DNA from: Flavobacterium marginilacus
GTDB taxonomy: Bacteria > Bacteroidota > Bacteroidia > Flavobacteriales > Flavobacteriaceae
Reading direction: 5' to 3'
Length of the DNA: 64,000 bases
Assembly: GCF_026870155.1 (NCBI RefSeq)
Contig: NZ_CP113975.1
Location: 3,968,001 to 4,032,000, forward strand
Below the pieces are notes generated by a model. The model worked only from the letters and a program-made list of their open reading frames with translations. It made no database searches and was not told where the DNA came from. Shown one piece after another: positions 42,505 to 64,000 of this stretch. The position numbers were made by a program, and so were the translations under genes. How positions within the stretch are numbered: position 1 is the stretch's first letter; each line of letters starts with the position of its first letter.

Positions 42505-44700
42505 CTATTCCACAGCGGTAATTTCGAGCACTACACTGTTTTCCTGACGGGAAGAAGAAACTTTCAATCCGATTTTCATGAGGAAATCACCCGAATATAC
42601 AGTTCCTGATTCTTCAAAAGTCTTTTTCCCTTTTGGCATTACATTGATTTCTTCTACTTTATACATTTTTTTGGCATCAAGCCCCTCTAATCTGACCAAA
42701 CCATAATTAGGATCTGTCAGTGGATGCAGGGTATATGAAAAAAGCACCGACTTCGTTTTATTTTCATTGACATACATCAATACTGCCCTGCTGTCCTCAT
42801 AAGGCGAAACCAATCGGTACAATTCTCCCTGCCAGATTGCTGGACTTAATCGTTTGTAATTGGCAACTGCCTCCTGACAATATTTCAATTCGTCGTCCTT
42901 AAGGCCTCCAACATGAATATCAAAACCCAGTTTACCCATCATGGTCACATCGGTTCTAAACTTTATGGATTGATTCCCCATAGAAGTAACGTGATTGCAA
43001 ACCGCCAATGCCGGATAAAAATTAGAATATCCCCACTGAATAAAAATACGGTCAAAAGGATCGGTATTATCGCTCGCCCAAAACTCGGTGAAATAATTCA
43101 GCATTCCATAATCCGACCTGCCTCCTCCTCCGGCGCAGAGCATCATTGGCAGATTCGGGTATTTCGACTTTATTCGGTCCAAAACTTTGTACAATCCCTT
43201 GGTGTAATCAATAAACAAATGGGATTGCTGATTTTTTAAATAAGTCGAATACGCACTGGTCATCATTCGATTACAGTCCCATTTAAAGAAAGCCACACCC
43301 GACTGTGTCTGCATAATATCATCGACCACCTTAAACACAAAATCCTGCACTTTTGGATTACATAAATCAAGAACCAATTGTGTTCTATAAAAACTCTTTT
43401 CTCTATTTGGAAGACTCAATACCCAGTCAGGGTGCTTCTCATACAATTCGGTTTTTTCATTAATCATTTCAGGTTCAATCCAAATTCCGAATTTCACATC
43501 TGTTTTTTTGGCTTGTTCCAATAGAAAACCAATCCCATCGGGAAGTTTTGCTTTAGTCGCCTGCCAATCTCCCAAACCTGAAGTAGAACCGCTTCTTGGA
43601 TATTTATTCCCAAACCAGCCGTCATCGAGTAAAAACATATCAACTCCCAATGTTTTGGCATCGGTAAACATATTAGCCAATTTATTTTGATCAAAATCAA
43701 AAAAAGTTGTCTCCCAATTATTCAGCAAAGTAAGACGTGATTTTTCACCGTCTTTCAGACCGTATTTTCTTGCCCAACTGTGCAGATTTCGGCTAGCCTG
43801 CCCTTTTCCGTTATTGGAAAACGTATAAATAAAAGCTGGTGTTTTGAATATTTCTTTGGGTTCCAAATTGTATTCTGAAGCAAATTCATTGATACCTGAA
43901 ACGATTCGCAGTTCATTATTATTATCAATCTCAAACTTATGCTTAAAGTTACCCGACCAAGCTATGGTACCAGCAATAACTTCGCCTGTATTTTCACCTG
44001 ATTTTGAATTAAGCGAAAGAAAAAAATTGGGTGAAGCAAACATATTGGTCCGCACTCCCAGTTTGGAGTCGATAACTTTACTGCCTCTGGTAAGCTGGCT
44101 TTCTTCCATTCGCATCTCTTCGACAACATCGCTGTAAAATTGGGTCAGCCAGTATTTATCGGCATCCAAATGCAATGCTGAAGAAGCATAATTATAAAGC
44201 ATCACCGGTTTTTTCTCCTGATGCTGAATTTCTGTCCACGATTCGATTACATTTTCCTTGTAAAAAACTTTATAGTGAAGATCAACAAATACAGGATATT
44301 GAGGATCTTTTAAGCGAATGACAGTTTCCGTAGTATTGGCATCTATTTTTGCAGAATTATGATTTTGATATTCCAATTCCAATGAAGGATTTCCGTCGTT
44401 GTGCTTTATACGGATGGCGGGTTCAAATAAATTATCTGTGCCAAAAGTCGGGTAAGCCAGATGACGCAGATCGATTAAAGGATTGCCGTCGTTTATGACA
44501 AACTTTTTGGTGTTTTCTTTCGAAATGAATTCATACTCTGAACCGTTATTGAGCTTAGTTCCAAAATAAGTCTGATAAAGCTTTTTGTTCTTACCTATTT
44601 TTAAAACAAGAGCTGAACTTTCCGTTTCAATGCGAATCATTTCTTGCGCCTGAATTGAGGAACACAGCAGAGTTAAGAATGAGAATAATAATTGCTTCAT
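42505..44700 (-). CDS. Exported GH36 alpha-galactosidase
   Basis: 731 residues with a signal peptide (1-18, ending SSIQAQ). The N-terminal beta-sandwich is followed by a TIM barrel with LLDDGWFGNKYP, the nucleophile motif FKWDCNRMM (Asp near 474) and acid/base ASDNTDPFD (Asp near 542), the set typical of GH36 alpha-galactosidases. It acts outside or in the periplasm. It ends the minus-strand cluster of glycosidases and peptidases that continues to the window edge. In plant extensins serine can carry alpha-linked galactose, a possible substrate. Confidence 0.93.
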   Translation of the reverse strand: MKQLLFSFLTLLCSSIQAQEMIRIETESSALVLKIGKNKKLYQTYFGTKLNNGSEYEFISKENTKKFVINDGNPLIDLRHLAYPTFGTDNLFEPAIRIKHNDGNPSLELEYQNHNSAKIDANTTETVIRLKDPQYPVFVDLHYKVFYKENVIESWTEIQHQEKKPVMLYNYASSALHLDADKYWLTQFYSDVVEEMRMEESQLTRGSKVIDSKLGVRTNMFASPNFFLSLNSKSGENTGEVIAGTIAWSGNFKHKFEIDNNNELRIVSGINEFASEYNLEPKEIFKTPAFIYTFSNNGKGQASRNLHSWARKYGLKDGEKSRLTLLNNWETTFFDFDQNKLANMFTDAKTLGVDMFLLDDGWFGNKYPRSGSTSGLGDWQATKAKLPDGIGFLLEQAKKTDVKFGIWIEPEMINEKTELYEKHPDWVLSLPNREKSFYRTQLVLDLCNPKVQDFVFKVVDDIMQTQSGVAFFKWDCNRMMTSAYSTYLKNQQSHLFIDYTKGLYKVLDRIKSKYPNLPMMLCAGGGGRSDYGMLNYFTEFWASDNTDPFDRIFIQWGYSNFYPALAVCNHVTSMGNQSIKFRTDVTMMGKLGFDIHVGGLKDDELKYCQEAVANYKRLSPAIWQGELYRLVSPYEDSRAVLMYVNENKTKSVLFSYTLHPLTDPNYGLVRLEGLDAKKMYKVEEINVMPKGKKTFEESGTVYSGDFLMKIGLKVSSSRQENSVVLEITAVE

Positions 44701-44758
44701 CTTTTATATTTTTAAAATAAATCTGTATTTTTTCAATAAACACTAAACGTCTTTCCTG

Positions 44759-46099
44759 CTAATTAATCTCAGGAACCGTACCAAATAACTGAAACTGATA
44801 AGGCCATTGCTCGTCCGGTGTTTTGTCTGGATTGTCGCCCCATCTGTTAGGCCGAGGCCAATGTTGGGTGGGAGCACCGGAAACAACTAGCCATAAATGT
44901 TCGGTGTTTTTTGGGACTGTAAAAGAAGCTTTACCAGCACTCTTTTTGAAAATTTCACTATACACCCGGTCTCCATTTTTTAATTGAGCCACAAAACCAT
45001 AACGCCAGCCCGCTTTTTCAGCTTTCACTTTTGAAAATCCATCTGCTCCTGCAATTCCCTCAAAATTCAATTTTATTTTAGTTCCAAATTTCGGAACAGT
45101 CAGCTTAATTCCATTGTAGCCATAGTTTTGAGGACAATTGATTGAATCAATCTTATACCAGCCATTTTGCATTTTATCAACTTTGGTGTAATGCTTGTTA
45201 GCATAAGGCTTGGCAACAGAATCAATTCTTTTTAAATCCCAAGTTATAAATTTTCGGCTGGCATCAAATATTTCATCATTAAACTGTTCTTGTGTGAGTG
45301 CATTCAAGCGTTTGTATGTCATTACGGGATCTTCTCCTTCCTGAGTATTCCGCATCAGTTTTCCGAAAAAGTCTTTTCCCCGTTTCTCTGACCAATATTC
45401 AATTACATAAGGAGAATGATACATATTATATGGATGCAGAAAACCATAATAAGTTCCTTTTAAATAATCCGTCAAATGATAATTTTCAAAAGTCATCCAG
45501 TCAGGATATACCTGCCAAAGCATATACTGTGCAGACATTTCCTGTATAACTCCATCGGTGCCTTTTCCTGTATCGGCGTGGCTTAAATACTGAAAACTGT
45601 GTCCCAATTCATGCGCCAAAACTCCGTAAGGTTCTTTGTGCACACGAACCGCAGGTGTCCAAAAAATTCCAACTTTATCTTCCTCTCCTCCACCGAAAGC
45701 CGTCTTTTCCTCACCTTTGAATACATAGACCAAAATCTTGTATTTATTTACAAGTGAATTACCTGATTCCACCAGTTTTAGCTTATTGACATAGATATCG
45801 TAAATCCTTTCGCATTCAATCAACATTCGATCAGGGTTGAAACGCTCTGATTCTTCGGGATTGGACATTGGATTCTTCCCATAATCTTTATGCCAAAAGA
45901 TTGCAATGTTTTCTGAAGTGACCATATAATTAAAATTATAGTCACTATTTGGATTTTTATAATCATTATCATCAGGAATCATCCAGACTTTTTTAGGAAG
46001 ATATAATTCTTTCTCCTTCAATTCTTTAGAAAAACCGACGAAAAATGCAAAACAAAGTAAGCAAGTTAAATTTTTTATCAGAGTTTTATTTTGCTGCAT
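44759..46099 (-). CDS. DUF6055-like putative zinc metallopeptidase
   Basis: 446 residues with an N-terminal hydrophobic signal (NLTCLLCFAFFVGFS). The core has VLAHELGHSFQYLSH (HExxH variant near residue 160) and, about 20 residues on, QEMSAQYMLWQ, which could give the third metal ligand (gluzincin style). The C-terminal half is beta-rich with WLVVSGAPTQHW. I recall the family as DUF6055, with a putative peptidase; no substrate is known to me. It lies between Xaa-Pro peptidase and alpha-galactosidase, consistent with glycopeptide breakdown. Confidence 0.65.
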   Translation of the reverse strand: MQQNKTLIKNLTCLLCFAFFVGFSKELKEKELYLPKKVWMIPDDNDYKNPNSDYNFNYMVTSENIAIFWHKDYGKNPMSNPEESERFNPDRMLIECERIYDIYVNKLKLVESGNSLVNKYKILVYVFKGEEKTAFGGGEEDKVGIFWTPAVRVHKEPYGVLAHELGHSFQYLSHADTGKGTDGVIQEMSAQYMLWQVYPDWMTFENYHLTDYLKGTYYGFLHPYNMYHSPYVIEYWSEKRGKDFFGKLMRNTQEGEDPVMTYKRLNALTQEQFNDEIFDASRKFITWDLKRIDSVAKPYANKHYTKVDKMQNGWYKIDSINCPQNYGYNGIKLTVPKFGTKIKLNFEGIAGADGFSKVKAEKAGWRYGFVAQLKNGDRVYSEIFKKSAGKASFTVPKNTEHLWLVVSGAPTQHWPRPNRWGDNPDKTPDEQWPYQFQLFGTVPEIN

Positions 46100-46156
46100 A
46101 ATCGCTAGTTTTATTAACTAAAGTGAGTTAATGTTCTTTATAAAATTAGAAACCAA

Positions 46157-47368
46157 TTAATACCCAAAAGGATTGTCCACACTCTGCATGGGAGTGGTAA
46201 ACCACTTCGGTCCGTTTTCGGTCATGTAAAAATGGTCTTCATGCCGGATTCCAAATTTTCCTGGGACACATATCATTGGTTCATTGCTTATCACCATTCC
46301 TTCAAGCAGTTTTATTTCACTTCCTCTGACTAAATACGGATATTCATGAATATCGAGTCCGGTTCCGTGACCAACCCTGTGAGGCAATCCGGGTAAATTA
46401 TAATCAGAACTTAACCCTGCTTCTGCCAATGTTTTTCGGGCAGCATCATCTACCGATCCGCAGAAAGAACCAATCTGTGCTGCTTCAAAAGCGGACTGCT
46501 GCGTTTTCTTTTCCAAATTCCAAAAGGTTCTGTATACATCAGAAGCTTCGCCATAAGCATATGATCTGGTAATATCCGAAAGATATCCTTCCAGTTTACA
46601 GCCGGTATCAATGATAACAGCTTCATTTTCTTTTAACGGCTGAGGAACTGAAACCCCATGAGGATATTGGGTGTCATCGCCAAACAAAACAATACAGAAA
46701 TAAGAACCGGAAACTATTCCCGCTTTAATGTGTGCTTTATTAACAAAATCCACAACTTCTCCAACAGTAATACCGGGTCTTAATATCCTGGCAGCAGCTT
46801 TTTGAACCTCGATCGTAATGTCTTTTGCTTTTTGAATTATCGCAATCTCATTTTTGGATTTTTGCATTCTGCAGCCTGCAGTAACCTGCTGGGCATTAAT
46901 AAAATCAAATGATCTATTTGCTTTTGAAATTCCATCAGCCAAAAAATAAGGTGACGACTCATCAATGGCAATTGAGCCGTCACTAATATTTTTATCCTCC
47001 AATAATTTACTAATCAATAAATAAGGAGATTCATGCTCTTCCCAGCAATTAATTGTCGATTGAACTTTCATGTATTTTTTGAAAGTGCCTTCTTCAAATT
47101 TTGGAACTATATATTCCAGAGAACCATCATCAAACAACAGTGCGCCCACCATTCTTTCCGAAGCACTCCAAAGAGTTCCCGTAAAATAATACAGATTGGT
47201 CCCAGCGTTTAGATAAAGAACCTTCACAGAATGCTCTTTCATTAACCGCACCGCTTTTTGAATCCGTTCCGAATATTCATTCAGCTGAATAGACTTCACA
47301 TTGTGAATTCTGTTTTCTATTTTTTCCAATTCAATGCCCACTGATGAACCGCCTACACCTATTGTCAT
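46157..47368 (-). CDS. M24 Xaa-Pro aminopeptidase/dipeptidase
   Basis: 403 residues with a creatinase-like N-terminal domain and a pita-bread catalytic domain. The five metal ligands are visible: VIIDTG (Asp near 252), LSDITRSY (Asp), LPHRVGHGTGLD (His), SNEPM (Glu) and IRHEDHF (Glu). No signal peptide, so it is cytoplasmic, unlike its neighbours. It cleaves the bond before proline (or hydroxyproline) in imported peptides. Located between GH43 and the DUF6055-like gene. Confidence 0.88.
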   Translation of the reverse strand: MTIGVGGSSVGIELEKIENRIHNVKSIQLNEYSERIQKAVRLMKEHSVKVLYLNAGTNLYYFTGTLWSASERMVGALLFDDGSLEYIVPKFEEGTFKKYMKVQSTINCWEEHESPYLLISKLLEDKNISDGSIAIDESSPYFLADGISKANRSFDFINAQQVTAGCRMQKSKNEIAIIQKAKDITIEVQKAAARILRPGITVGEVVDFVNKAHIKAGIVSGSYFCIVLFGDDTQYPHGVSVPQPLKENEAVIIDTGCKLEGYLSDITRSYAYGEASDVYRTFWNLEKKTQQSAFEAAQIGSFCGSVDDAARKTLAEAGLSSDYNLPGLPHRVGHGTGLDIHEYPYLVRGSEIKLLEGMVISNEPMICVPGKFGIRHEDHFYMTENGPKWFTTPMQSVDNPFGY

Positions 47369-47412
47369 TTTCTTAAAAATTAAAAGTTATTAATCATGGA
47401 TGCATCAATAAT

Positions 47413-49557: not shown

Positions 49558-49563
49558 CGAATA

Positions 49564-52254
49564 TTATAAATTAATTTGAATGGCTTTACTTTTCAAAGCA
49601 ATTTTGTAGGCTCCTCTAACTTTCTCATAAGACAGATTCACATCTTTGTCTATTCGTAAATAAGCATCGGGCGTAAACTCCGTTTTAGCATCCAAAGTAA
49701 TTTTTACTGCACCGGTTTTTGTATTGTAACTGATACTTTTAAATGTTCCCGCATCCAGAGTCAGCCACATTTTTTTAGGCGCAAGAAATATTTTAGATTT
49801 TGCAGCCGTTGTAATTTCTACTTCAGCTTCATCGCCGTTTTCTTTTAAATTACCTCCAAAAGCAACCCAGCCGTAATCCTTTTCATTTGTAATAAAGGTC
49901 GCAGTATTTACGGCGTAGCCAAAGAAACCGGAACCGTAATCTCCGGATAAATAATCAATTTTCAGGGTTTCAGGATAGGAATGGAAAGCCGCAGGTCCAA
50001 AACCATCTTCGGTAATATTTGAAATTCCTCCTAATAATCCGCCGTAACCTACTTTCAGCAGATGAAAATCATCAGGTGTTTTTTTGAACTGCTCCAAAAC
50101 CGGTATCGCATTCAAAGCCGAACCATAATGATGAATCTGACGCTCTACTCTGGAAAGTTTCCCTCCGTATAAAAAATCCCAGTATCTGCGGGCATTTCCA
50201 TTATAAGCCCAGTGCGGCATAGTAGGCATATAAGCCAAAATAGCATCAAGAGTAACCTTCGCTTTATCATTATATCCAAAATAATCCGACCACATATACA
50301 CCTCTTCCTGACCTGTGGAATCCCAAGGCATTTCGCTTCCAAAAGGATAATTAAGTGTTCTCCAATGATCAGCTCTTTCTTTCATCTTGGCTTCCAGATT
50401 ATTGGCCATTTCTGTATATCCTTCTGTTTTTAAATCTTTTAAAATCAATAAAAAGACAGTTCCTTCCATTTGCCCAAACTGCGCATAATAAGGTGCCAAT
50501 TTTGTCATTGCAATACTTGTTTCGTAAGCACTCTTCAGATACCAATCCCAAGAATGGTTGGTAACCAAACCTTTGTAATATCTGGCCAGACGGTACATTG
50601 TCCAATGTGCGGCGGCAACGTGCGGATAATTATAGGAACGTCCCGGATCATCAGCTCCTTTTTTGTCCCAAGCGGCCCAAGTCTTGAAATTAATGTCTTT
50701 GCAGTACGTTCCTTCAGGCATCTTTGCAGGTTCATAATAAAAAACACTTTTCTTAACCCCATACTTAAGAGTATCAGCTGTATTGTATTGAATACCGCCC
50801 CATAACGTTTTATCCACAAACTGCTCCAGCTTTTTTATTTCTTCTTTATTCGGTTCTATCAGCTGCTTCATCATCGCGCCAAGCCATCCGCCTGCACCTC
50901 CTTCATCACTTAAGCCACAAATCCAGGCACGGCTGTCCTGAACTACTTGCTTTTTGGTTTCATAATCATACGATATCACCGAAGGATTTCTGTGAAAAGG
51001 ATCGTTCTTTTGATCAAACCATTGTGCCGTTGTCAAAAAATGCCCAAAATCGGCGACAACTTCTTTTTCAGATTTAATCACCTTGTAATTAATTGTCTGC
51101 TGCAGTCCATCTTCATAAATCACTGTCAATCTGGCTCTTCCCCATTTTTTACCATGCACGGCATACTGGAAATATCCATTTTTGTTTTTCGATTTTTCCT
51201 CAACTGTCAAAGCTCCTTCCGGCTCAATTTTAAAGGATTTCACTGCTTTTTTATAATTCAAAAAAAGCTGTCCGTCTACATCCTGAGGCAAAACATAACC
51301 CGGAATTCCTACGGCTACAGGACGCTCATTTTGAATTAAAGCCGATTGAATATTTTTTATTTCATCAACCGATACAAACTTCAGCGAAAAATTTTTAACC
51401 TCTCCCGGCTGAAGCATCAGTGAAGTTGGTGTATTCCATTGATCGGCGGTTTTCCATTCGTTTTCAGCATAGGCTTTGCTTAACGGCATCCATTCGTGAA
51501 AACCTTCAAAAACAATGCTACGTGGTGTTTCATCATCCGATAAAGGGCGGTAAGCCTCAAATGGCATATTCGCTTCAGGAAGCAGCAGTAATGCCGGCCC
51601 GTGACCGCTCAGCCGTTTCACTTCAAGATAACCGGCATCTTTACCGATGTAAGGATCAAAAAACACGTTTTGAACATGCGTTTCATCCAGTGTTTTTCCT
51701 TCAAGTATGTTATTAAAAATCATTGGAACACCTAAAGCTCCAATTTCCTGAGCTGTATTGGATTTGTTTGTAATTTCAAAACGCATTACCAGACTCCCGT
51801 CCTTTTCTTCATAAAAACGTTTTATGGTTAAAGGAATTTCCTGAGGCAGGGTATTGGACAAATCTGCTCCAGCTAAAACATTTCCGGAAACATTCAAAGC
51901 GGTAACTGCTGACCGTTTGGCCGCTGTCGAATAACTTTTCCAGCTTCCGTCTGCTGCTTTTACCCGTAGATTAATATCGCCCAATTGATACAGCCCGTCT
52001 TTATCACGAATAGCCAGCCTGTCTCCCGGTGTAAAATCGAAACTTTTATCACTGACCGGAGATAAGGCAGCTACTGTCTGGGAAGATTTTACCAATTTCA
52101 ATTCAAAAGATTTTGTATTCAAATTAATAAATCCCTTATCTATTTCAAGCGTTGATTTTTTTGCTTTAATTCTGTCCCAATACTCTTGTGCCTGCAAATT
52201 ATTTGAAGCCACTAAACAGCAAATTGACAAGGCTATTGTTTTTATTTTTTTCAT
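49564..52254 (-). CDS. Large exported protein of unknown function, DUF5695-like
   Basis: 896 residues with signal peptide (1-22, ending NNLQAQ). Residues about 35-330 are beta-rich (GDRLAIRDKDGLYQLGDINLRV); about 400-800 contain paired aromatic helices, for example YNYPHVAAAHWTMYRLARYY and YSDYFGYND-type segments, that resemble an (alpha/alpha)6 glycosidase toroid. I believe it belongs to DUF5695 but this is memory. No catalytic pair is assigned. The position in a glycosidase cluster makes it a candidate uncharacterised glycoside hydrolase or lyase. Confidence 0.55.
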   Translation of the reverse strand: MKKIKTIALSICCLVASNNLQAQEYWDRIKAKKSTLEIDKGFINLNTKSFELKLVKSSQTVAALSPVSDKSFDFTPGDRLAIRDKDGLYQLGDINLRVKAADGSWKSYSTAAKRSAVTALNVSGNVLAGADLSNTLPQEIPLTIKRFYEEKDGSLVMRFEITNKSNTAQEIGALGVPMIFNNILEGKTLDETHVQNVFFDPYIGKDAGYLEVKRLSGHGPALLLLPEANMPFEAYRPLSDDETPRSIVFEGFHEWMPLSKAYAENEWKTADQWNTPTSLMLQPGEVKNFSLKFVSVDEIKNIQSALIQNERPVAVGIPGYVLPQDVDGQLFLNYKKAVKSFKIEPEGALTVEEKSKNKNGYFQYAVHGKKWGRARLTVIYEDGLQQTINYKVIKSEKEVVADFGHFLTTAQWFDQKNDPFHRNPSVISYDYETKKQVVQDSRAWICGLSDEGGAGGWLGAMMKQLIEPNKEEIKKLEQFVDKTLWGGIQYNTADTLKYGVKKSVFYYEPAKMPEGTYCKDINFKTWAAWDKKGADDPGRSYNYPHVAAAHWTMYRLARYYKGLVTNHSWDWYLKSAYETSIAMTKLAPYYAQFGQMEGTVFLLILKDLKTEGYTEMANNLEAKMKERADHWRTLNYPFGSEMPWDSTGQEEVYMWSDYFGYNDKAKVTLDAILAYMPTMPHWAYNGNARRYWDFLYGGKLSRVERQIHHYGSALNAIPVLEQFKKTPDDFHLLKVGYGGLLGGISNITEDGFGPAAFHSYPETLKIDYLSGDYGSGFFGYAVNTATFITNEKDYGWVAFGGNLKENGDEAEVEITTAAKSKIFLAPKKMWLTLDAGTFKSISYNTKTGAVKITLDAKTEFTPDAYLRIDKDVNLSYEKVRGAYKIALKSKAIQINL

Positions 52255-54009: not shown

Positions 54010-54044
54010 TGCCTTTTTGATTGTTTTAAATACTTTTAAGCAAA

Positions 54045-57000
54045 TTATTTAAGCGTAACATCCATATAAACAGAGTGACGACCATAAGTATCATAAAATG
54101 GTTTATAGAGAACTCCGTCAATGGTAAACTCTAGTTTCTTTGGGTCACCCTGAATCGATTTACTGATATCTTTAGCGTCCAAAGTCACTTTTCGCCAATC
54201 TTTCCGAGGTTCCGTTTCCTGCGCGGCTAATAATACAGGACCATAAAACAAACTGGCAATATTCTGCTGATCCATAACTGGTTCCAAATGAAACTCAAAC
54301 GGCATGCGAAGCTCGATTGTGTCTCCGTCTTTCCATTTGCGGCTCAAAGTAAGATAGCTTCCCGGTGTGGCTTTCACTTTTTCTTCTTTACCATTTATTT
54401 TTACAAAAAATCCTTTTGCTGCCCAATGAGGCACACGGACATTGATGTCAAAATTTCCGCTTCCTTTAATAGTCAATCGGGTAAAATCTTCATTAGGAAA
54501 ATCTGTTGTTTGTTCTATGGTTATATTCTTTTCGGTCCATTTTAATGTTGAAGGCACATACAGATTTACATAAAGTGCGCCGTTGTCTGCACTTTTAAAA
54601 TAAATTGAATTCTGAAATTTCGTGTTACTCTCAATAGCCGTTCCGTTACAGCAGGTGAAACCCATCATGTGCGGATTACCAAACTGTTTTACTGAACCTG
54701 GCCGCAACGGAACATGATACGTATTTGCAGGACTATCCTTTGCCACCGAAGCCAGTATGTGATTGTAAAGTCCGCGCTCGTAATAATCCATCAGTTCGCC
54801 GCGCTGCTCATAAAGGAACAAATCTCCCGTTAATTTTAACATATTATAAGTGGCGCAAGTCTCATTTTGACCTCCGGATGAAAAACCGTTTTCATAAATT
54901 GTTGCTGGCTGACTGATAAAGCATTCTGCATTGGCAGGATTTCGTGCTCCCGCAACTCCCCCGATGCTGTACATATAATCATTTACAGTTTTATGCCAAA
55001 AATTATCTGCCACACGGTAATAGTCAGGTGTATTGGAATCGCGGTACATTTCAAGCGCTCCCATAATCTGCGGAATGTGCTGGTTCGCGTGCAATCCCCG
55101 GAAAGTATCTACATTTTTAGCCAGTCCGTGAGAATGCTGTGCGTCGCCATAGAATACTTTTATATTGTCAAACAGCTGTGCTGCTTCTAAATAATGGGGA
55201 TTTTTGGTTATTCGGTAAAGTCTGGCCATTGCTTCATTCATTCCTCCAAACTCGCCTGCAATATATCTGTTCCACATACTGATGAGTGTCTCTGTAGGCA
55301 GTTTTTTCAAACGGGCATACACCCAGTCTCCCATTCCTTTGGCTGTTTCGAGCGCTTTTTCGTTACCGCTTACTTCATAAACATCCATTAAACCGGCAAG
55401 AATTTTATGCAGTGTATAATAGGGCGCCCAAATTTGTGTTTTCTGTCCGCCGTATGTTGCGCCGTTTTCCAGCATAATAAACTGATCCGGAGGATAGGCA
55501 CTTATAAAACCTTTGCCCCAATTCCAGTAATCGGTGCGCATGCCTTCATTGCTCAATTCTGATTCATAAGCTGTTTTATCTGGTCCAAAAGGCACTGCTG
55601 CTGGGTCTGAAACGAACTTTCCTCCAGCTTCTTTCGGATTTCCGGAAAGCTGCGACAATTGATAAAGTGTATTAACCATATACTGCATTTTATCAGTAAA
55701 ATTGGCCTGCAAAACTTTATCATAGCCCGTACTTGCATAAGCTTGGGCAATTGCTGTCAGGTAATGTCCTGTGACATGACCGCGCAGTTTTGTTTCCTGA
55801 GTATCCCACACACCAAGCGGTTCGGCCCCTTTTGGCTGTTCTTGTCCAAAAGCATTTCGGAACATGTAAAGAAAAGAATCCGGATCTGTCTGCGAAAGTG
55901 CTGTAAGGAACTTATCCCGATTCTCAATGAGTTTTGTATGGTTTCCGTCAAGATTGTTATTTAATGAAACCTGATCCAAATGGAAGGCTTCCAGCTTACG
56001 TTCCGGTGTGATAGCTTTTTTTGCTTCTTTTATGGTAACAACGGCTTTTGGCTTCAAATCTGTTCCGGGAACAATTCCAGTTACCGTGTACTGCCCAGTT
56101 TTAAGCACTTGGCTGTTTTCTTTTGGCGAAGGCCAGATTACGCGCACTTCCGGCCCTTGAATGCCATCACGATAAATACCTTTTACATAAGCCGGAATCC
56201 TTGGCAGATTCCCTACTTCAGTTTCCACTTTAATATCAGCGACGCTTTTCAGAAACTGATTGTACAGCTGTGGAGTGTTTTTTGAAAACAAAGGTAATCC
56301 TGCAGCCTGATCTTCTGCCGTTTCCTCTTCCTGATCTGCTGTTAAAGAATTCTTGTAAATTCTGCCAATCTGCTTGTCGCTCAAAGACACTCTGTAGATT
56401 CTGAAATCATGTAGTTTGGCGTTAAGAAATACATTTCCAGAACCCAATGCTTTACCTATATAGAGTTTATTCTCTGAACCTGCAGTTTTATTAAACAATT
56501 GGTTCAAATCCAATTCTACATTCTTGGCTTCGCTTACAAGAACTCCGTTTACGTAAGTACTTATTAATTTTGAAGGTATATTAATAACCACTGCCAAATG
56601 ATTCCACTTGCCTGCCTCAAGAGCGGGAGAATCTGTTTTGTATTTATTCAATCCGTTACTGATTTCGGTATGAAATCCCTGATCCGTTTTGGTACCCATC
56701 GGCGCAGCAAAAAAATGGGACTTGTCATCTTTTCCAAAATCAAAAAAACACTGGTCTTTTTCAGTGGAACGCATAAAAATCCATCCAGTTATGCTAAGTG
56801 ATTCTTCTCCCGCCAATGCATCAGCCGGAATCGAAACAAAAGCCTGATTATCGGGAAGCAGATAAAGTACTCTGCCAAACTGTTCGTCATTAACAAATTT
56901 GACTTTAGATTCCTCAATTTTACCATGCAGATTATTTCTCGACCAGTCCTTTGCACTGCCATCAAATAAATACCGGGCAATTAGTTCCGTTTCACCAATT

Positions 57001-57098
57001 CCGTCTAAAATCTGATCTCCGTTTTGAGCCTGTACTTTTGTTGTGTTTAATCCAAAAAAACTTAATACTATACAAATAAGCAAGTTATATCTATTCAT
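54045..57098 (-). CDS. Exported beta-L-arabinofuranosidase-type protein (GH127/GH146) with LamG and Ig-like modules
   Basis: 1017 residues: signal peptide (1-25, ending KVQAQ), LamG/concanavalin-like module (about 35-250), Ig-like stretch (about 285-360), then the DUF1680 catalytic fold (about 366-1000). Active-site features ETCATYNMLKLTG (Glu and Cys near 743) and FTCCNGTAIESN (Cys pair near 816), which fit the Cys-Glu mechanism of beta-L-arabinofuranosidases. GH127 versus GH146 cannot be separated by eye. Known members of these families include enzymes acting on hydroxyproline-linked beta-L-arabinose. Confidence 0.85.
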   Translation of the reverse strand: MNRYNLLICIVLSFFGLNTTKVQAQNGDQILDGIGETELIARYLFDGSAKDWSRNNLHGKIEESKVKFVNDEQFGRVLYLLPDNQAFVSIPADALAGEESLSITGWIFMRSTEKDQCFFDFGKDDKSHFFAAPMGTKTDQGFHTEISNGLNKYKTDSPALEAGKWNHLAVVINIPSKLISTYVNGVLVSEAKNVELDLNQLFNKTAGSENKLYIGKALGSGNVFLNAKLHDFRIYRVSLSDKQIGRIYKNSLTADQEEETAEDQAAGLPLFSKNTPQLYNQFLKSVADIKVETEVGNLPRIPAYVKGIYRDGIQGPEVRVIWPSPKENSQVLKTGQYTVTGIVPGTDLKPKAVVTIKEAKKAITPERKLEAFHLDQVSLNNNLDGNHTKLIENRDKFLTALSQTDPDSFLYMFRNAFGQEQPKGAEPLGVWDTQETKLRGHVTGHYLTAIAQAYASTGYDKVLQANFTDKMQYMVNTLYQLSQLSGNPKEAGGKFVSDPAAVPFGPDKTAYESELSNEGMRTDYWNWGKGFISAYPPDQFIMLENGATYGGQKTQIWAPYYTLHKILAGLMDVYEVSGNEKALETAKGMGDWVYARLKKLPTETLISMWNRYIAGEFGGMNEAMARLYRITKNPHYLEAAQLFDNIKVFYGDAQHSHGLAKNVDTFRGLHANQHIPQIMGALEMYRDSNTPDYYRVADNFWHKTVNDYMYSIGGVAGARNPANAECFISQPATIYENGFSSGGQNETCATYNMLKLTGDLFLYEQRGELMDYYERGLYNHILASVAKDSPANTYHVPLRPGSVKQFGNPHMMGFTCCNGTAIESNTKFQNSIYFKSADNGALYVNLYVPSTLKWTEKNITIEQTTDFPNEDFTRLTIKGSGNFDINVRVPHWAAKGFFVKINGKEEKVKATPGSYLTLSRKWKDGDTIELRMPFEFHLEPVMDQQNIASLFYGPVLLAAQETEPRKDWRKVTLDAKDISKSIQGDPKKLEFTIDGVLYKPFYDTYGRHSVYMDVTLK

Positions 57099-57150
57099 AA
57101 TTCCTTTTCTTCTTGATTAAAAAAACGTTTTTCTCCTATCCTTTTAATAG

Positions 57151-59406
57151 TTACTTTTTATAAATTTCATCCCAGGAAGGCGGTGTAACTCCCAATAAAT
57201 GCTGTACAAAATAATCTCTTCGTTTTCGTTCTCCAAAATCTCCTCCGGCTGAATGCCCCATTCCCGGAACTGTAACCAATTCAAAATTCTTATTGGCTTT
57301 TATCAATGCATTTGCAAACTGCATCGTCGAAGCCGGATCAACATTATCATCCAATTCTCCCAGAATTAACATTAGATTTCCTTTTAACTGTGCAGCATTA
57401 GCAGTATTTGAACAAGCTTCATATTCTGGTCCTATCGGATATCCCATCCATTGCTCATTCCACCACATTTTGTCCATTCGGTTATCGTGACAGCCGCAGG
57501 ATGCTACAGCTACATCATAAAAATCAGAATTAAAAACTAGGGCTGCTCCTGCATTTTGTCCGCCTGCCGATGTTCCGTGAATGCCGACTTTGTCAATATT
57601 CATATAAGGATATTTGGCTGCCGCTGCTTTCATCCACAATTTTCTATCAGGAAAACCGCCGTCCTTTAAATTTTTCCAGCATACATCCTGAAAAGCTTTG
57701 GAACGGTTTGAAGTTCCCATTCCGTCAATCTGAACTACAATAAATCCTAATTCTGCCAAAGATGACATTGCCCAATAGTAAGGCTGAAAATTTTTTGGAA
57801 CAAATGAATCCTGCGGGCCTGCATAGATATATTCGATAATTGGATATTTACGATCCGGATCAAAAGTCGTAGGACGTACAATAACTCCCCAAATATCTGT
57901 TTTACCATCCCTTCCTTTGGCCGTAAAAACTTCCGGGGTAATCCACCCAGTCTGCTTCAATGCCGAAATATCAGCCTGCTGCATTTCTAAAACTGTCTTT
58001 TGTGTATCGGTTCTTTTCAAAAGAGTCACAGGCGGCAAATCAACTCTGGAGTATTGATCGACATAATACTTATAATCCGGCGAAAAAGTTACTTTATGGT
58101 TTCCGTTTCCTGTTGTCAGTCTTTTAAAGTTTTTTCCTTCGAAATCAATTTGGCAATAGTGCAGCAGATACGGATCCTGATTACTGTCCAGTCCGCTTGC
58201 TGTAAAATAGACTTGTCTTTTTTCCTCGTCTATTTTAATTATTCCTCTAACAGGCCAGTTTCCTTTTGTAATCTGATTTTTGACCTTTCCGGTAACGGCA
58301 TCATACAAATACAAATGATTCCATCCGTCACGCTCTGAAGCCCAAATTATTTCGTTATTTTTTTTAATATTATATCGGTATCTTTTTCCGCTGTATTCTA
58401 CAAAAGTCGGACTCGTTTCTTCAATAATAACCTTTACTTTTCCTGTTGTCGCGTTTACTTCCAGAACACGGTAAACCTGATGCCCCCGCTGATTGTATTC
58501 AAAAGTAAAACCGCTGCTGTTATCATTCCATTCTATCCCTGAAATATCATACTGCTGCTGAAATAAATCTGTAGTAACTGAAATTTGTTTTTTGGCAGCC
58601 ACATCAAATACCTGCGGACTTTTAAAAGGCAATTGATCTCCCGGTTTTAAATAATCACGCGTCTGCAGTTTTGGCTGCAACTGATCTTTTGGACTCGATT
58701 CTACAAAATAGATTTTATGTTCTTCACCAGGTCTTACTTTATAAGCCATTATTTTTCGGCTGTCTGGTGACCATTGCATGTATGAGGAATAATAAAATCC
58801 TTTTGAGCCGTCATAACTCAACTGAATTTCTGCCTTTGTTTTTTTGTTTCTGATATATAAATTATAGTTTTTTATAAAAGCAATGTTCAGTGAATCTGGT
58901 GAACCGACAGGTTTATTTCCTAACTCATCAAAATTATCTCCCCAGTATTCATCCTTTTTCGCTGGCTTTTTATACCCTCCTTTTATTCTGCTTAATTGAT
59001 AGTTTTTTAAATCACACGAAAATTTAATAGTATCAATAGTAAACAGTAATGTTTCATGGTTTTTACCAAATTCTAAATTATCTATGGGAAGGTCATTAAA
59101 ATTTATTTCTTTACCCATATTTTTTGATAACGATGCTGCCAGCTGATTAGGGTTAAAAGCTGTAAATTGTTTTTCTCCCTTAGCATCAACCAAAAGAAAC
59201 TCCTTTTCTTTTCCATTGTTATTACTGTACCATAAATAACCATCTTCCAGCCAATGGAATTCTTTGGGAGTATTAAACACCTTATTTTTGAATAAAGAAT
59301 CTACCGCATTTGCACGTTTATATTCTTTCAATGTTCCTTGACTGTGCGCAGTTAAACAGCACGAAAGTGTTAAAATCACACTTATTATTTTACTAGTTTT
59401 TCCCAT
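57151..59406 (-). CDS. Exported S9 prolyl peptidase, DPP-IV-like
   Basis: 751 residues with a signal peptide (1-22, ending TAHSQG). An N-terminal beta-propeller (about 50-500, DYKYYVDQYSR motifs) and an alpha/beta-hydrolase C-terminus with Ser in GTSAGGQNAG (near 612), Asp in GELDDNVDP (near 686) and His in GMGHSAGGDFGERKRRDYF (near 716). Dipeptidyl peptidase IV types release Xaa-Pro (or Xaa-Hyp) dipeptides. Probably periplasmic. It sits between the permease and the beta-L-arabinofuranosidase. Confidence 0.9.
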   Translation of the reverse strand: MGKTSKIISVILTLSCCLTAHSQGTLKEYKRANAVDSLFKNKVFNTPKEFHWLEDGYLWYSNNNGKEKEFLLVDAKGEKQFTAFNPNQLAASLSKNMGKEINFNDLPIDNLEFGKNHETLLFTIDTIKFSCDLKNYQLSRIKGGYKKPAKKDEYWGDNFDELGNKPVGSPDSLNIAFIKNYNLYIRNKKTKAEIQLSYDGSKGFYYSSYMQWSPDSRKIMAYKVRPGEEHKIYFVESSPKDQLQPKLQTRDYLKPGDQLPFKSPQVFDVAAKKQISVTTDLFQQQYDISGIEWNDNSSGFTFEYNQRGHQVYRVLEVNATTGKVKVIIEETSPTFVEYSGKRYRYNIKKNNEIIWASERDGWNHLYLYDAVTGKVKNQITKGNWPVRGIIKIDEEKRQVYFTASGLDSNQDPYLLHYCQIDFEGKNFKRLTTGNGNHKVTFSPDYKYYVDQYSRVDLPPVTLLKRTDTQKTVLEMQQADISALKQTGWITPEVFTAKGRDGKTDIWGVIVRPTTFDPDRKYPIIEYIYAGPQDSFVPKNFQPYYWAMSSLAELGFIVVQIDGMGTSNRSKAFQDVCWKNLKDGGFPDRKLWMKAAAAKYPYMNIDKVGIHGTSAGGQNAGAALVFNSDFYDVAVASCGCHDNRMDKMWWNEQWMGYPIGPEYEACSNTANAAQLKGNLMLILGELDDNVDPASTMQFANALIKANKNFELVTVPGMGHSAGGDFGERKRRDYFVQHLLGVTPPSWDEIYKK

Positions 59407-59571
59407 AATTAAATTATTAATAAAAATAGTTTTAATTCACTGAACCTTGTTGGTCAATATTAACAGATACTATGATTATATTACCTCTAAAACCGCAAAT
59501 ACAATAAGAAAACGGAATATTAATACATCTCTTCCTGTAGCTTATTTTCTGCTATAAAAGCATAATAATAG

Positions 59572-60987
59572 CTAAACAGTCTCTTTTTCTTTTATCAGAT
59601 AATAAATCGGGATTCCTATCAGCATAATCAAAACACCCCAGCCACAAGTTGACATTTTTGTAAATAATAATGATATACATATCCCTGAAGCAATTATTAT
59701 ATACAGCAATGGTAAATAAGGATACCCAAAAGCTTTATAAGGACGTACTGTATCCGGCATTTTTTTGCGGAGAATAATTATGCCTAAAATTGTAAGAATA
59801 TAGAAAATAAGCACAATTATAATAACAAAGTCCAGTAAATCACTGTATTTACCAGTAAGGCACAACACCGAAGCCCATAAACACTGTGCCCAAAGTGCCC
59901 ATGCAGGAACACTGGCATTGTTAAGTTTTGCCGCTTTTTTAAAAAACAATCCATCATTTGCCATTGTATAATACACTCTGGCTCCAGCCATAATCAATCC
60001 GTTGTTGCAGGCAAATGTCGAAATCATAATCATCAGCGCAATTATTAATGTCCCGATGTCTCCAAAAATATACTGCGAAGCCACAACCGCTACCCTATCG
60101 GATTTAGCTGTCGCAATTTCATTTAACGGAATAACAGCAACATACATTAAATTCGTCAGAACATAAATTATGGTAACGATAACTGTTCCCAAAAGCATGC
60201 TTAACCCAACATTACGCTTTGGATTTTTAATTTCGCCTGCAATAAAAGTAACTCCAGTCCAGGAATCACTGGAAAACAAAGCCCCTACCATAGCTGCTGA
60301 AATTCCCGAAATCAAAGCCGTTCCTCCAATTGGAGACCAAGAACCTGAATCTGAATTAAAAGAACGCGGTGTCCAGGCATCGCTCCAATTGGAATTCCAA
60401 ATTGATGCTTTGGCAGCCAATGCAAATCCAAAAATAATTAATCCTGAAATCGAAAGTATTTTTATAATAGTTAGAATAGTCTGCAGCATTTTACTTTTTT
60501 TTACCCCGCAGGTATTCAGATAAGTGAGAAAAATAATGGTTACAATAGAAACAATCTGCGCGACATTGAGCTTAAAACTGCCCAATTGATAAAGAATGTT
60601 CTCGTCACTTACAGCCGGAATCAGATAGGCAGCAAATTTTGAAAAAGCGACTCCCACTGCTGCAATGGTTCCGGTTTGGATCACTGCAAAAAAGCTCCAG
60701 CCATACAAAAAGGCAATTAATTTATTATAGGCTTCTTTTAAGTAAACATACTGTCCGCCGGCATTGGGAAACATTGCGCTCAATTCTCCGTAGCTTACCG
60801 CCGCGATCATGGTAATTAATCCGGAAATCAGCCATATTAAAATCAGCCAGCCTGTAGAACCTACCTGCCTGGCAATATCGGCACTCACAATAAATATTCC
60901 CGAACCAATCATTGATCCTACCACAAGCATGGTTCCGTCGAGAAGTCCTAGTTCTTTCTTAAATTCTTTTTGATTGTCTTTTGTCAT
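59572..60987 (-). CDS. APC-family amino-acid permease
   Basis: 471 residues with about 12 membrane segments and the APC motif GTMLVVGSMIGSGIFIVSADI near the N-terminus (unwound helix 1). It imports amino acids with a cation or by exchange. Placed between the hydroxyproline catabolic genes and the prolyl peptidase, so proline, hydroxyproline or another released amino acid is a reasonable substrate, but specificity cannot be read. Confidence 0.9.
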   Translation of the reverse strand: MTKDNQKEFKKELGLLDGTMLVVGSMIGSGIFIVSADIARQVGSTGWLILIWLISGLITMIAAVSYGELSAMFPNAGGQYVYLKEAYNKLIAFLYGWSFFAVIQTGTIAAVGVAFSKFAAYLIPAVSDENILYQLGSFKLNVAQIVSIVTIIFLTYLNTCGVKKSKMLQTILTIIKILSISGLIIFGFALAAKASIWNSNWSDAWTPRSFNSDSGSWSPIGGTALISGISAAMVGALFSSDSWTGVTFIAGEIKNPKRNVGLSMLLGTVIVTIIYVLTNLMYVAVIPLNEIATAKSDRVAVVASQYIFGDIGTLIIALMIMISTFACNNGLIMAGARVYYTMANDGLFFKKAAKLNNASVPAWALWAQCLWASVLCLTGKYSDLLDFVIIIVLIFYILTILGIIILRKKMPDTVRPYKAFGYPYLPLLYIIIASGICISLLFTKMSTCGWGVLIMLIGIPIYYLIKEKETV

Positions 60988-61175
60988 TATGTAGTTGGTT
61001 TGTTTAGTTAAACTTTAAAAATCTGTTTCAGATTCCAAATATGGTCAGCATTTAGAATTTAGTTTGAATAAAATAATTTAAAACTGCACAGCATTATTTT
61101 AAAAAAATGTAACTGCTCTGTGATTAGTTACAAAAAAATTAGCTTCACTTTTAAATCAAAAATGAAGCTGAATTT
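60988..61175. other. 188-base gap holding the terminator of the hydroxyproline catabolic genes
   Basis: The permease promoter presumably lies here but no exact TAnnTTTG is seen. Besides the 61133-61170 hairpin there is a second short stem, GTAACTGCTCTGTGATTAGTTAC, near 61110-61132. No gene. Confidence 0.55.
61133..61170 (-). terminator. Rho-independent terminator after the D-amino-acid dehydrogenase gene
   Basis: Minus-strand stem AGCTTCA ... TGAAGCT (61163-61169 and 61141-61147) with an A/T-rich loop, followed by AATTTTTTTG. It begins six bases past the stop codon of the 61176-62411 gene, so it separates the hydroxyproline catabolic transcript from the permease and hydrolase genes. Confidence 0.7.
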
Positions 61176-62411: not shown

Positions 62412-62483
62412 TATTCACATAAATTAAAAAAACATTGGCAGTGATACTTATCCGCAAACCAATTATTTTTCATTACTATTTAC

Positions 62484-63494
62484 TTAAATCACCTGAAAAC
62501 CAAAAGCATACGGATCATCATCTTCATCGATAATAATCGTATTGTAACCATATACTTTTGCCCAGCCCTGAATGCTTGGTACAATAGCACTAATATCTCC
62601 TATGGATGTTTCTTCTTCAACCCTTCCGATGAATTTGCTTCCGATAAAACTTTCATGAACATAATCTTCTCCCTTTTTCAATTTTCCTTTGGCATGAAGC
62701 TGTGCTATTCTAGCCGAAGTTCCTGTACCGCAGGGAGAACGGTCTATGGCTTTATCTCCGTAAAAAACAGCATTTCTGCCGGATGACGCAGGATCTATCG
62801 GTTCTCCTGTCCATAGCATATGACTTACATCACGAATCGTGTCATTTTCAGGATGAATAAAAAGATTTGGATATTTTTCATTAATCCGTTTTCTCACTTC
62901 CTGACTGTACTGCACAATTTTTCCAGCCGTAAAATCCTGAATACCTGAAAAATTCTTTTGCGGATCCACAATAGCATAATAATTTCCGCCATAAGCCACA
63001 TCAAAAACAATCTCTCCCAATTCAGGACAATCAACAGTAAGACCTTCGGCTGCCAGATATGATTTTACATTTGTCAAACGAACCCAATCCACCTTTTTTC
63101 CTGTCTGCTGGTATTCAATCTGAACCAGACCGGCAGGAGCTTCCATTTTTATTTTCCCAGGGATTTTGGGTGTAATCAATCCTTCTTCGACGGCAATGGT
63201 TATAGTTCCAATGGTTCCGTGACCGCACATAGGCAGACATCCTGAAGTCTCGATGAATAAAATTCCAATATCATTCTCCGAATTACTCGGCGGATACAAG
63301 ATACTGCCGCTCATCATGTCGTGACCTCTCGGTTCAAACATTAATCCTTTACGGATCCAATCGTATTCTTTTAAAAAATGCTGCCGCTTTTCACTCATGT
63401 TGTTTCCAACAAGATTTGGGCCTCCGCCGGCAACTACTCTTACTGGATTACCGCAAGTATGCGCATCTACACAAAAAAATGTTTTTCTTGGCAT
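62484..63494 (-). CDS. 4-hydroxyproline 2-epimerase
   Basis: 336 residues of the proline racemase family. Two active-site cysteines are present: PMCGHGT (Cys near 89) and DRSPCGTGT (Cys near 252), so it is a racemase/epimerase and not the Thr-containing dehydratase type. MSGSILYPPS and the neighbours indicate 4-hydroxyproline epimerase (trans-4-L-Hyp to cis-4-D-Hyp), the first step of hydroxyproline catabolism. It is followed at 4-base distance by the aldehyde dehydrogenase reading upstream on the same strand. No signal peptide. Confidence 0.9.
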   Translation of the reverse strand: MPRKTFFCVDAHTCGNPVRVVAGGGPNLVGNNMSEKRQHFLKEYDWIRKGLMFEPRGHDMMSGSILYPPSNSENDIGILFIETSGCLPMCGHGTIGTITIAVEEGLITPKIPGKIKMEAPAGLVQIEYQQTGKKVDWVRLTNVKSYLAAEGLTVDCPELGEIVFDVAYGGNYYAIVDPQKNFSGIQDFTAGKIVQYSQEVRKRINEKYPNLFIHPENDTIRDVSHMLWTGEPIDPASSGRNAVFYGDKAIDRSPCGTGTSARIAQLHAKGKLKKGEDYVHESFIGSKFIGRVEEETSIGDISAIVPSIQGWAKVYGYNTIIIDEDDDPYAFGFQVI

Positions 63495-63497
63495 AAA

Positions 63498-64000
63498 TTA
63501 TATTGGATTCTTTGTTAGTATATCATTTATGGTTCTAGTGATATTCCGCAGATTTTTATCCTGCAGAGCTGCTGGCAGCAATGCATCCGGCCAATCCTGA
63601 TAAGTTACCGGGCGCACCCATCTTTTTACTGAAGTTAATCCCACTGACGTAAATTTACTGTCTGAACTCGCAGGAAATGGTCCGCCGTGTGTCATTCCGG
63701 AACAAACCTCAACTCCCGTAGGAACATTATTAAAAACTAACCTTCCTACTTTATTTTTGAGGTTTTCGATTACTTCCCTGAACTCATCCAATTCTTTTAA
63801 ATCAGAATTTATTATCGTTCCTGTCAGCTGTCCTTCCAAATCATGAATAATTTCATTCAGCTGATCCACATCATCACATTTGACAACAACCGAAAAAGGC
63901 CCGAAAACTTCCTTATGGAATGTTTTATTTTTTAAAAAAGTACCGCCATCAACCGATATTATATTCTGCAGTGCATAATTTGGTTTTATCTCTTTATTCA
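63498..64000 (-). CDS. Aldehyde dehydrogenase, probable 2-oxoglutarate-semialdehyde dehydrogenase, C-terminal part
   Basis: The last 167 codons; the frame is open through the window edge (it extends past the internal GTG at 63867, reading EVFGPFSVVVKCDD just upstream). The EVFGPF motif is the aldehyde-dehydrogenase signature, followed by the RLVFNNVPTGVEV and MTHGGPFPAS substrate-loop region. In hydroxyproline loci the partner is 2-oxoglutarate-semialdehyde dehydrogenase, the last step to 2-oxoglutarate. The catalytic Cys lies outside the window, so the specificity is not fixed. Confidence 0.8.
   Translation of the reverse strand, partial: NKEIKPNYALQNIISVDGGTFLKNKTFHKEVFGPFSVVVKCDDVDQLNEIIHDLEGQLTGTIINSDLKELDEFREVIENLKNKVGRLVFNNVPTGVEVCSGMTHGGPFPASSDSKFTSVGLTSVKRWVRPVTYQDWPDALLPAALQDKNLRNITRTINDILTKNPI

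What the first reader, a model, noticed from the sequence alone, without database searches (positions are those of the whole stretch)
42505..64000. Candidate locus for hydroxyproline-rich glycoprotein (extensin-type) use: deglycosylation, prolyl proteolysis and hydroxyproline catabolism side by side
Seen: twelve consecutive minus-strand genes. They include exported GH36, GH43+discoidin+LamG, GH127/146+LamG+Ig and DUF5695-like proteins; DPP-IV-like S9 and Xaa-Pro M24 peptidases; two HExxH-type proteins; an APC permease; 4-hydroxyproline epimerase; D-amino-acid dehydrogenase; and aldehyde dehydrogenase. Known: plant extensins carry hydroxyproline-linked beta-L-arabinofuranosides with a terminal alpha-L-arabinose, plus serine-linked alpha-galactose, and trans-4-Hyp is degraded by epimerase, D-Hyp dehydrogenase, deaminase and semialdehyde dehydrogenase. 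Inference: the combination matches that substrate closely and links sugar removal directly to Hyp breakdown. The alternative is an arabinan/pectin cluster lying by chance beside a Hyp catabolic operon.
Basis: partly seen in the sequence, partly recalled or inferred. Interest (0 to 1): 0.88.

Follow-up and report, generated by a model that had tools for sequence, protein, structure and literature searches.

The report
Plant wall glycoprotein-eating gene regulon
This stretch of a Flavobacterium genome looks like a jointly controlled toolkit for eating hydroxyproline-rich glycoproteins of plant or algal cell walls, from stripping off arabinose sugars to burning the rare amino acid hydroxyproline, and related bacteria tend to keep the same parts together.

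Summary
In detail: twelve minus-strand genes fill 42505-64000. The grouping is not chance. All 9 of 121 congeners with full-length DUF5695 also carry a proline-racemase-family gene, 10-19 kb away in the 8 where one contig holds both, in two gene orders. The linkage recurs in Allomuricauda/Flagellimonas, with L-arabinose catabolic genes alongside. A 31-bp direct repeat (TAATATART-N12-TAATAWTRRC) precedes the SusCD, hydroxyproline and peptidase/glycosidase operons. These are its only three perfect copies in the 5.3-Mb genome. In relatives it often precedes S9, the deaminase gene, SusC and an Svx-like peptidase gene, and rarely other genes. Svx of Pectobacterium cleaves extensin (PMC13164431). 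So one AraC-type regulon probably couples deglycosylation, proteolysis and hydroxyproline catabolism of hydroxyproline-rich glycoproteins. Extensin is the best single guess; arabinogalactan proteins or algal glycoproteins are not excluded. DUF5695 folds like the PL27 rhamnose-cap lyase. No biochemistry has been done, and the linkage is not universal.

The parts
42505..44700 (-). GH36 alpha-galactosidase-type protein, signal peptide (by eye)
   Evidence: Pfam PF02065/PF16875/PF16874; best PDB matches are alpha-galactosidases
44759..46099 (-). DUF6055 metallopeptidase-like protein, remote relative of the Svx peptidase domain, short form
   Evidence: PF19527 461.6 bits; NF040510 Svx/AvrXca E 5.7e-15, 55 bits, cut-off 625; HEXXH-X19-E motif
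46157..47368 (-). M24 Xaa-Pro peptidase-like (creatinase/prolidase fold)
   Evidence: PF00557, PF01321
47413..49557 (-). GH43 + F5/8 type C + LamG, signal peptide (by eye); GH43 subfamily not determined
   Evidence: PF04616, PF00754, PF13385; best PDB matches 5msx, 3qz4
49564..52254 (-). DUF5695, signal peptide (by eye); predicted beta-sandwich plus alpha/alpha barrel, PL27-like fold
52318..54009 (-). DUF885 peptidase-like protein, signal peptide (by eye), HE-x4-H motif
   Evidence: PF05960; PDB 3u24 putative lipoprotein
54045..57098 (-). LamG + Big_4 + GH127/146-type beta-L-arabinofuranosidase, signal peptide (by eye)
   Evidence: PF07944, PF20736; 5opj (GH146) E 6.4e-64; E725, E746, C748, C816, C817 invariant 36/36
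57151..59406 (-). S9 DPP-IV-like prolyl peptidase, signal peptide (by eye); first gene of the presumed peptidase/glycosidase operon
   Evidence: PF00930, PF00326; bacterial DPP-IV structures
59453..59483 (-). Direct-repeat regulatory site 47 bp before the S9 gene
   Evidence: TAATATAATCATAGTATCTGTTAATATTGAC, 0 mismatches
59572..60987 (-). APC amino-acid permease
   Evidence: PF13520
61176..62411 (-). FAD D-amino-acid dehydrogenase, inferred cis-4-hydroxy-D-proline dehydrogenase
   Evidence: PF01266; NF001933 subfamily 280.9 bits, below its cut-off of 383
62484..63494 (-). 4-hydroxyproline 2-epimerase
   Evidence: NF010578 592.7 bits, cut-off 376
63498..64000 (-). Aldehyde dehydrogenase, inferred alpha-ketoglutarate semialdehyde DH, cut by the window edge (continues to L002:3066)
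   Evidence: PF00171

Best explanation
It is a hydroxyproline-rich-glycoprotein utilization regulon. Inferred steps: the SusCD pair takes up arabinosylated, Hyp-rich glycopeptides. Periplasmic GH43 (alpha-Ara), GH146-type (beta-L-Araf), GH36 (alpha-Gal) and DUF5695 strip the sugars. The DUF6055, DUF885, M61, S9 and M24 peptidases cut the Hyp/Pro-rich peptide. The APC permease brings the amino acid in. Epimerase, D-Hyp dehydrogenase, DHDPS-family deaminase and aldehyde dehydrogenase turn trans-4-hydroxyproline into 2-oxoglutarate. An AraC-family protein, encoded beside the Hyp operon, switches on three operons (SusCD; Hyp catabolism; peptidases plus glycosidases) through the direct repeat TAATATART-N12-TAATAWTRRC. 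Shown computationally: gene content, conservation and the shared site. Inferred: enzyme activities, operon structure, regulator binding, Hyp or a catabolite as inducer, and extensin-type glycoproteins as the substrate.
For: Deaminase-type gene, AraC and SusCD are present past the edge. In the genus DUF5695 always co-occurs with HypE: 9 of 9, hypergeometric p 1.5e-8, 10-19 kb apart in the 8 with both on one contig, in two arrangements. The ~1020-aa GH127-type protein is seen in the same 9 genomes only. HypE-family genes are in 49 of the 50 genomes tested among the 80 DUF5695 loci. In the family sample, 15 of 16 DUF5695 genomes against 142 of 283 others have it, p 3.9e-4. Three perfect sites occur in the whole genome, all in this locus. 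In other genomes the site precedes S9 in 36 of 54, DHDPS 24 of 53, SvxLong 11 of 15, SusC 7 of 17, and other genes 8 of 629. Twenty permuted patterns average 0.35 hits or fewer per class and at most 4. The 4 Svx-like genes without the site lie in genomes with no racemase-family match. GH36 is replaced by a GH97 relative of retaining alpha-galactosidases (727.8 bits, under its cut-off of 800, one protein tested) in the second arrangement. AraB, AraD and AraA lie beside the cluster in Muricauda L156. Svx cleaves extensin (PMC13164431, Results read). Some GH146 enzymes act on Araf-beta-Hyp (PMC10850190, passages).
Against: No enzyme was assayed. The window's DUF6055 lacks the acyltransferase-like domain that Svx needs to cut extensin (PMC13164431), and it is the only DUF6055 match in this genome. 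DUF6055 is in 7 of the 9 DUF5695 genomes of the genus but also in 7 without DUF5695. None of the locus proteins scanned matched a GH121, although the known Hyp-arabinoside pathway uses one (PMC6085000, abstract); no GH121 search was made. In the family sample 5 of 13 full-length DUF5695 genes are not near the epimerase gene. Of 18 Hyp operons detached from DUF5695, only 6 have the site at 2 mismatches or fewer (Leeuwenhoekiella and Galbibacter lack it). DUF5695's fold points to a uronate lyase of arabinogalactan protein, not to an extensin enzyme. The motif was found by eye in this genome before being tested in others.
Confidence: 0.75

Rival explanations
1. The substrate is not extensin but another hydroxyproline-rich glycoprotein: arabinogalactan proteins, or algal wall glycoproteins in the relatives recalled to be marine. 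The regulon logic stays the same.
For: DUF5695 folds like PL27 BACCELL_00875, one of three PL27 enzymes reported to release rhamnose from gum arabic (PMC8377490, passages). Some sister genomes carry GH42 beta-galactosidase (18 of 80 loci). Allomuricauda and Flagellimonas carry the cluster.
Against: No GH16, GH30 or GH79-type AGP enzymes appeared among the cluster proteins scanned; the GH43 subfamily was not determined, so GH43_24 is not excluded. Alpha-galactosidases and the Svx-like peptidase fit Ser-O-alpha-Gal extensin better.
Confidence: 0.35
2. A pectic-arabinan cluster lies beside a Hyp operon by chance.
For: GH127/146, GH43 and GH36 families also act on arabinan or galactosides. In Maribacter, Galbibacter and Leeuwenhoekiella the glycosidase module is away from the Hyp operon.
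Against: Linkage survives rearrangement and recurs across genera. Similar sites stand before both operons. Peptidases are embedded among the glycosidases.
Confidence: 0.07
3. The locus serves collagen-type or other non-arabinosylated Hyp peptides, and the glycosidases are passengers.
For: Eleven genomes of the genus sample have a Hyp cluster without DUF5695; in G088 it has aminopeptidase P, DPP-IV and SusCD.
Against: Here the glycosidases are packed into one gene run with the S9 peptidase, and none of the locus proteins scanned matched a collagenase family. Arabinosidases have no evident use on collagen.
Confidence: 0.08

Closest known systems
Xanthomonas euvesicatoria XeHypAA/XeHypBA2/XeHypBA1 and Bifidobacterium longum HypAA/HypBA2/HypBA1 (PMC6085000 abstract; PMC10850190 passages)
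   Same: GH43 plus GH127/146-family enzymes for Hyp-linked arabinofuranosides.
   Different: GH121 is the middle enzyme there and was not seen here; DUF5695 is present here instead. The abstract and passages read mention no peptidases or Hyp catabolism in those systems.
Svx peptidase of Pectobacterium (PMC9266454 passages, PMC10815107 abstract, PMC13164431 abstract, Results and part of Discussion)
   Same: DUF6055 relatives with the gluzincin motif. Sister genomes hold a long form; the one tested (L148) matches Svx 41-557/601 and has a T9SS tail.
   Different: The window's own copy is the short form without the acyltransferase-like domain, and it lies in a nutrient-type locus.
Trans-4-hydroxyproline catabolic operon (4HypE, DAAO-family oxidase, DHDPS-family deaminase, KGSA dehydrogenase; PMC4113996, passages)
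   Same: All four enzyme families adjacent.
   Different: Joined by position and a shared site to glycosidases, peptidases and SusCD.
Polysaccharide utilization locus (SusCD; definition recalled)
   Same: SusC/SusD pair, exported glycosidases, local regulator.
   Different: The inferred target is a glycoprotein; the peptide's own amino-acid catabolism is encoded inside it. An AraC-type regulator was seen rather than HTCS or ECF.
PL27 L-rhamnose-alpha-1,4-D-glucuronate lyase BACCELL_00875
   Different: 16% identity and no HMMER match. Catalytic residues could not be compared.

Membership tests
trans-4-Hyp epimerase pathway | Cys-Cys 4-hydroxyproline 2-epimerase | tested here: met
   NF010578 592.7 bits vs cut-off 376; MCGHGT and DRSPCGTG both found in 68 of 71 homologues, the second alone in the other 3
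trans-4-Hyp epimerase pathway | DAAO-family D-Hyp dehydrogenase, DHDPS-family deaminase, ALDH-family KGSA dehydrogenase adjacent | tested here: met
   PF01266, PF00701, PF00171 adjacent; met at family level only, no NCBIfam model passed its cut-off for these three among the rows shown
Polysaccharide utilization locus | adjacent SusC and SusD | tested here: met
   L002:6974-8575 and 8587-11598
Svx peptidase | HEXXHX(8,28)E gluzincin motif | tested here: met
   HELGH-X19-E
Svx peptidase | C-terminal acyltransferase-like (LbH) domain | tested here: not met
   446 aa; one Pfam domain, 26-444. The long homologue tested (L148) matches Svx to residue 557. The window protein is therefore not filed as Svx.
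GH146/GH127 beta-L-arabinofuranosidase | Zn(Glu,Cys3) site with Cys nucleophile and acid/base Glu | tested here: met
   ETC and CC motifs aligned with 5opj and 8k7y; invariant in 36 of 36. Zn ligands E723, C725, C804, C805 of Bll3HypBA1 from PMC10850190 passages. The acid/base assignment to E725 is inferred.
GH146 | CAZy family assignment | not testable with these tools
   nearest solved relatives are GH146
PL27 | fold | tested here: met
PL27 | sequence-level family membership and catalytic residues | tested here: inconclusive
   no HMMER hit in PDB up to E 10; residues not comparable, source paper not held

The most novel reading that the evidence does not exclude
An amino acid, hydroxyproline or one of its breakdown products, is the signal that switches on glycan removal. 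One AraC regulator governs SusCD, glycosidases, an extensin-cutting peptidase and Hyp catabolism as a single glycoprotein-utilization regulon in many Flavobacteriaceae, and DUF5695 is a new enzyme for the Hyp-linked glycan (filling the GH121 step, or a PL27-like uronate lyase). The similar site before Hyp-only operons is what suggests that Hyp is the inducer.
Probability: 0.4. Interest if true: 0.82.

Novelty: new variant of a known kind. Interest (0 to 1): 0.72.

Why it matters
Extensins and related wall glycoproteins are a main store of plant hydroxyproline (background knowledge). A bacterial locus that uses their sugar and peptide together did not turn up in the listings of the searches made here (an open-access subset, and long hit lists were seen only in part). 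It would extend the PUL idea to glycoproteins, give a purpose to DUF5695 and DUF6055, and suggest how plant- and alga-associated Bacteroidota use wall protein. The regulon is directly testable.

Tried and rejected
Bacteroidetes -33/-7 promoter patterns were scanned in 14 intergenic gaps and gave no hit. Sequence searches of the DUF5695 profile against PDB found nothing. The GH127-type structure model was poor (pLDDT 69.9; 708-747 under 50), so active-site geometry was not read from it. L145's Hyp operon looked near by coordinates but lies on another contig, and so do those of L173, L184, L186, L197 and L207 (contig lengths differ; L145 also by sequence); they were not counted as linked. At 2 mismatches the motif is no better than its reversed control in the whole genome (13 against 19 places at up to 2 mismatches); only the perfect matches stand out. 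The pattern was tuned after seeing relatives; one search uses the untuned one. In both tests the window genome and L130 were left out and genes whose proteins share the same first 150 residues were counted once (57 dropped). GH121 was not searched for.
Full report
WHAT IS THERE. The twelve reported genes exist on the minus strand from 42505 to the window edge. The window is G000:C1:3968001-4032000 of a 5.3-Mb genome. It is a Flavobacterium by its neighbours; the nearest named relative found is Flavobacterium sp. HJJ (98% in DUF5695). Taking the next 20 kb (L002; window coordinate = L002 + 62000) shows aldehyde dehydrogenase (1498-3066 -), DHDPS-family protein (3087-4010 -), AraC regulator (4131-5075 +), M61 peptidase (5150-6736 -), SusD (6974-8575 -) and SusC (8587-11598 -).

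CONSERVATION. In a sample of 121 genomes of the genus (own included), full-length DUF5695 is in 9 and a proline-racemase-family match in 21, of which 20 score like this epimerase (E below 1e-124). All 9 DUF5695 genomes are among those 20 (p 1.5e-8). In the 8 with both genes on one contig the gap is 10-19 kb; in G074 they are on two short contigs. The long (~1020 aa) GH127-type gene is seen in the same 9 only, although the GH127 family passes its cut-off in 56 of 121. DUF6055 is in 7 of the 9, and also in 7 genomes without DUF5695. Twelve genomes have the racemase family without DUF5695.

Two core orders exist. G000, G060, G079 and G103 run SusC-SusD-[AraC]-DHDPS-ALDH-HypE-dehydrogenase-APC-S9-GH127L-DUF885-DUF5695-GH43-GH36, with M61, GH42, M24 and DUF6055 genes coming and going. 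G042, G049, G102 and G112 have GH127L-DUF5695-(GH42)-GH43-GH97 as one block and AraC-DHDPS-ALDH-HypE-S9-DUF885-dehydrogenase-APC-M61 as another. There GH36 is absent and GH97 is present; the one GH97 tested (L147) scores 727.8 bits for 'retaining alpha-galactosidase' (cut-off 800), and the four are 87-96% identical to it.

Among 80 named loci found with DUF5695 (240 candidates, best 80 kept), the held DNA shows at least one Hyp-pathway gene in 37, GH127L in 63, S9 in 48, DUF885 in 43 and GH43 in 38. The Hyp counts are lower bounds, because flanks were at most 10 kb and only 12 loci were extended. Of 50 of those 80 genomes searched, 49 contain the racemase family. In 299 genomes of the family, 15 of 16 with a DUF5695 match carry it against 142 of 283 without (p 3.9e-4). 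Of the 13 with full-length DUF5695, 8 have it within 17 kb and 5 do not. In Muricauda sp. CP2A (L156), a NUDIX/AraR-type regulator, GH51, L-ribulokinase, ribulose-5-P epimerase and L-arabinose isomerase genes follow DUF5695. Ten of 80 loci show both Hyp and arabinose genes. Shared ancestry means these counts are not independent events.

ONE REGULATORY SITE. Reading the intergenic DNA I noticed a direct repeat, TAATATART-N12-TAATAWTRRC, before S9 (59453-59483, 47 bp upstream), before the DHDPS operon (L002 4142-4172, 132 bp upstream, farther than in relatives) and before SusC (L002 11667-11697, 69 bp upstream). These are the only perfect matches in the genome. A perfect fit is expected for the sequences the pattern came from; what is informative is that no other place matches perfectly. 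One other place has 1 mismatch and nine have 2, against 19 places for the reversed control.

With the window genome and its near-twin L130 left out, and up to 3 of 19 mismatches within 250 bp on the same strand, the site precedes S9 in 36 of 54, DHDPS in 24 of 53, the long Svx-like gene in 11 of 15, SusC in 7 of 17, M1 in 3 of 13 and unassigned genes in 8 of 629; three of those 8 are DHDPS-like at 28-29% identity. Genes inside the runs rarely have it: HypE 0 of 68, dehydrogenase 0 of 64, DUF5695 0 of 80, DUF885 0 of 49, ALDH 1 of 56, GH43 1 of 38, APC 1 of 21, GH127L 2 of 64. A pattern refined after seeing relatives gives S9 39 of 54, DHDPS 33 of 53, SvxLong 11 of 15, SusC 10 of 17, GH127L 8 of 64, other 5 of 629; twenty permuted patterns give at most 4 of 54. 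The 4 Svx-like genes without the site belong to G052, G075, G091 and G114, which have no racemase-family match.

In the Hyp-only clusters, 8 of 10 measurable DHDPS genes have the refined site at 2 mismatches or fewer, beside an AraC of 52-57% identity. This points to Hyp or a catabolite as the signal (inference). Results against: of 18 Hyp operons lying apart from DUF5695 (L228-L246), only 6 have it at that level; those of Leeuwenhoekiella and Galbibacter do not.

SUBSTRATE. DUF6055 is related to Svx: the window protein weakly (E 5.7e-15), the long form of a sister genome (L148) over Svx 41-557 of 601 (E 4.5e-62) with a T9SS tail. Pectobacterium Svx cleaves extensin and needs its acyltransferase-like domain to do so (PMC13164431: abstract, Results and first part of Discussion read). 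The window's copy has the HEXXH-X19-E motif but is short, so it may act on flexible or already trimmed glycopeptides (inference). Extensin carries Ser-alpha-Gal and Hyp-linked arabinose chains up to alpha-Ara-(1,3)-beta-Ara3 (same paper). GH43, GH146-type and GH36/GH97 families fit that glycan, and the Xanthomonas and Bifidobacterium enzymes use GH43 and GH127/146 plus GH121 (PMC6085000 abstract; PMC10850190 passages). An earlier in-silico paper assigned extensin use to Latescibacteria from GH127 (PMC4454575, passages), without Hyp catabolism in the passages seen.

VERDICT. The grouping of deglycosylation, proteolysis and Hyp catabolism is real, conserved in many though not all carriers, and very probably co-regulated. 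Extensin is the best single guess, and other hydroxyproline-rich glycoproteins remain open.

Noticed in passing
window 49557-49564: Many sister genomes carry a GH42 beta-galactosidase gene between DUF5695 and GH43 (GH42 in 18 of 80 loci); the window genome and L130 lack it and the two genes are 6 bp apart, so it was probably lost here.
   Followed up: partly
L119 (G088) 233-13571 and similar loci: Hyp clusters without arabinosidases; in G088 with aminopeptidase P, DPP-IV, SusC and a SusD-like_2 protein: a second, peptide-only kind of Hyp locus with a similar AraC-type site.
   Followed up: partly
L002:12025-12819 -: 264-aa protein upstream of SusC without a Pfam match.
   Followed up: no
L156:12648-13439 -: NUDIX plus NrtR/AraR-type winged-helix regulator beside GH51 and araBDA, next to the Hyp cluster.
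   Followed up: partly
L148:19893-22502 -, L149:18344-20953 -: 870-aa protein recurring in the second arrangement; the one tested (L148) has only a T9SS sorting domain recognised.
   Followed up: no
window 41368-42462 +: A GTPase that by eye resembles ArgK/MeaB borders the locus; what looks like a relative also appears near DUF5695 in Leeuwenhoekiella L202:411-1448. It may be a conserved neighbour or coincidence.
   Followed up: no
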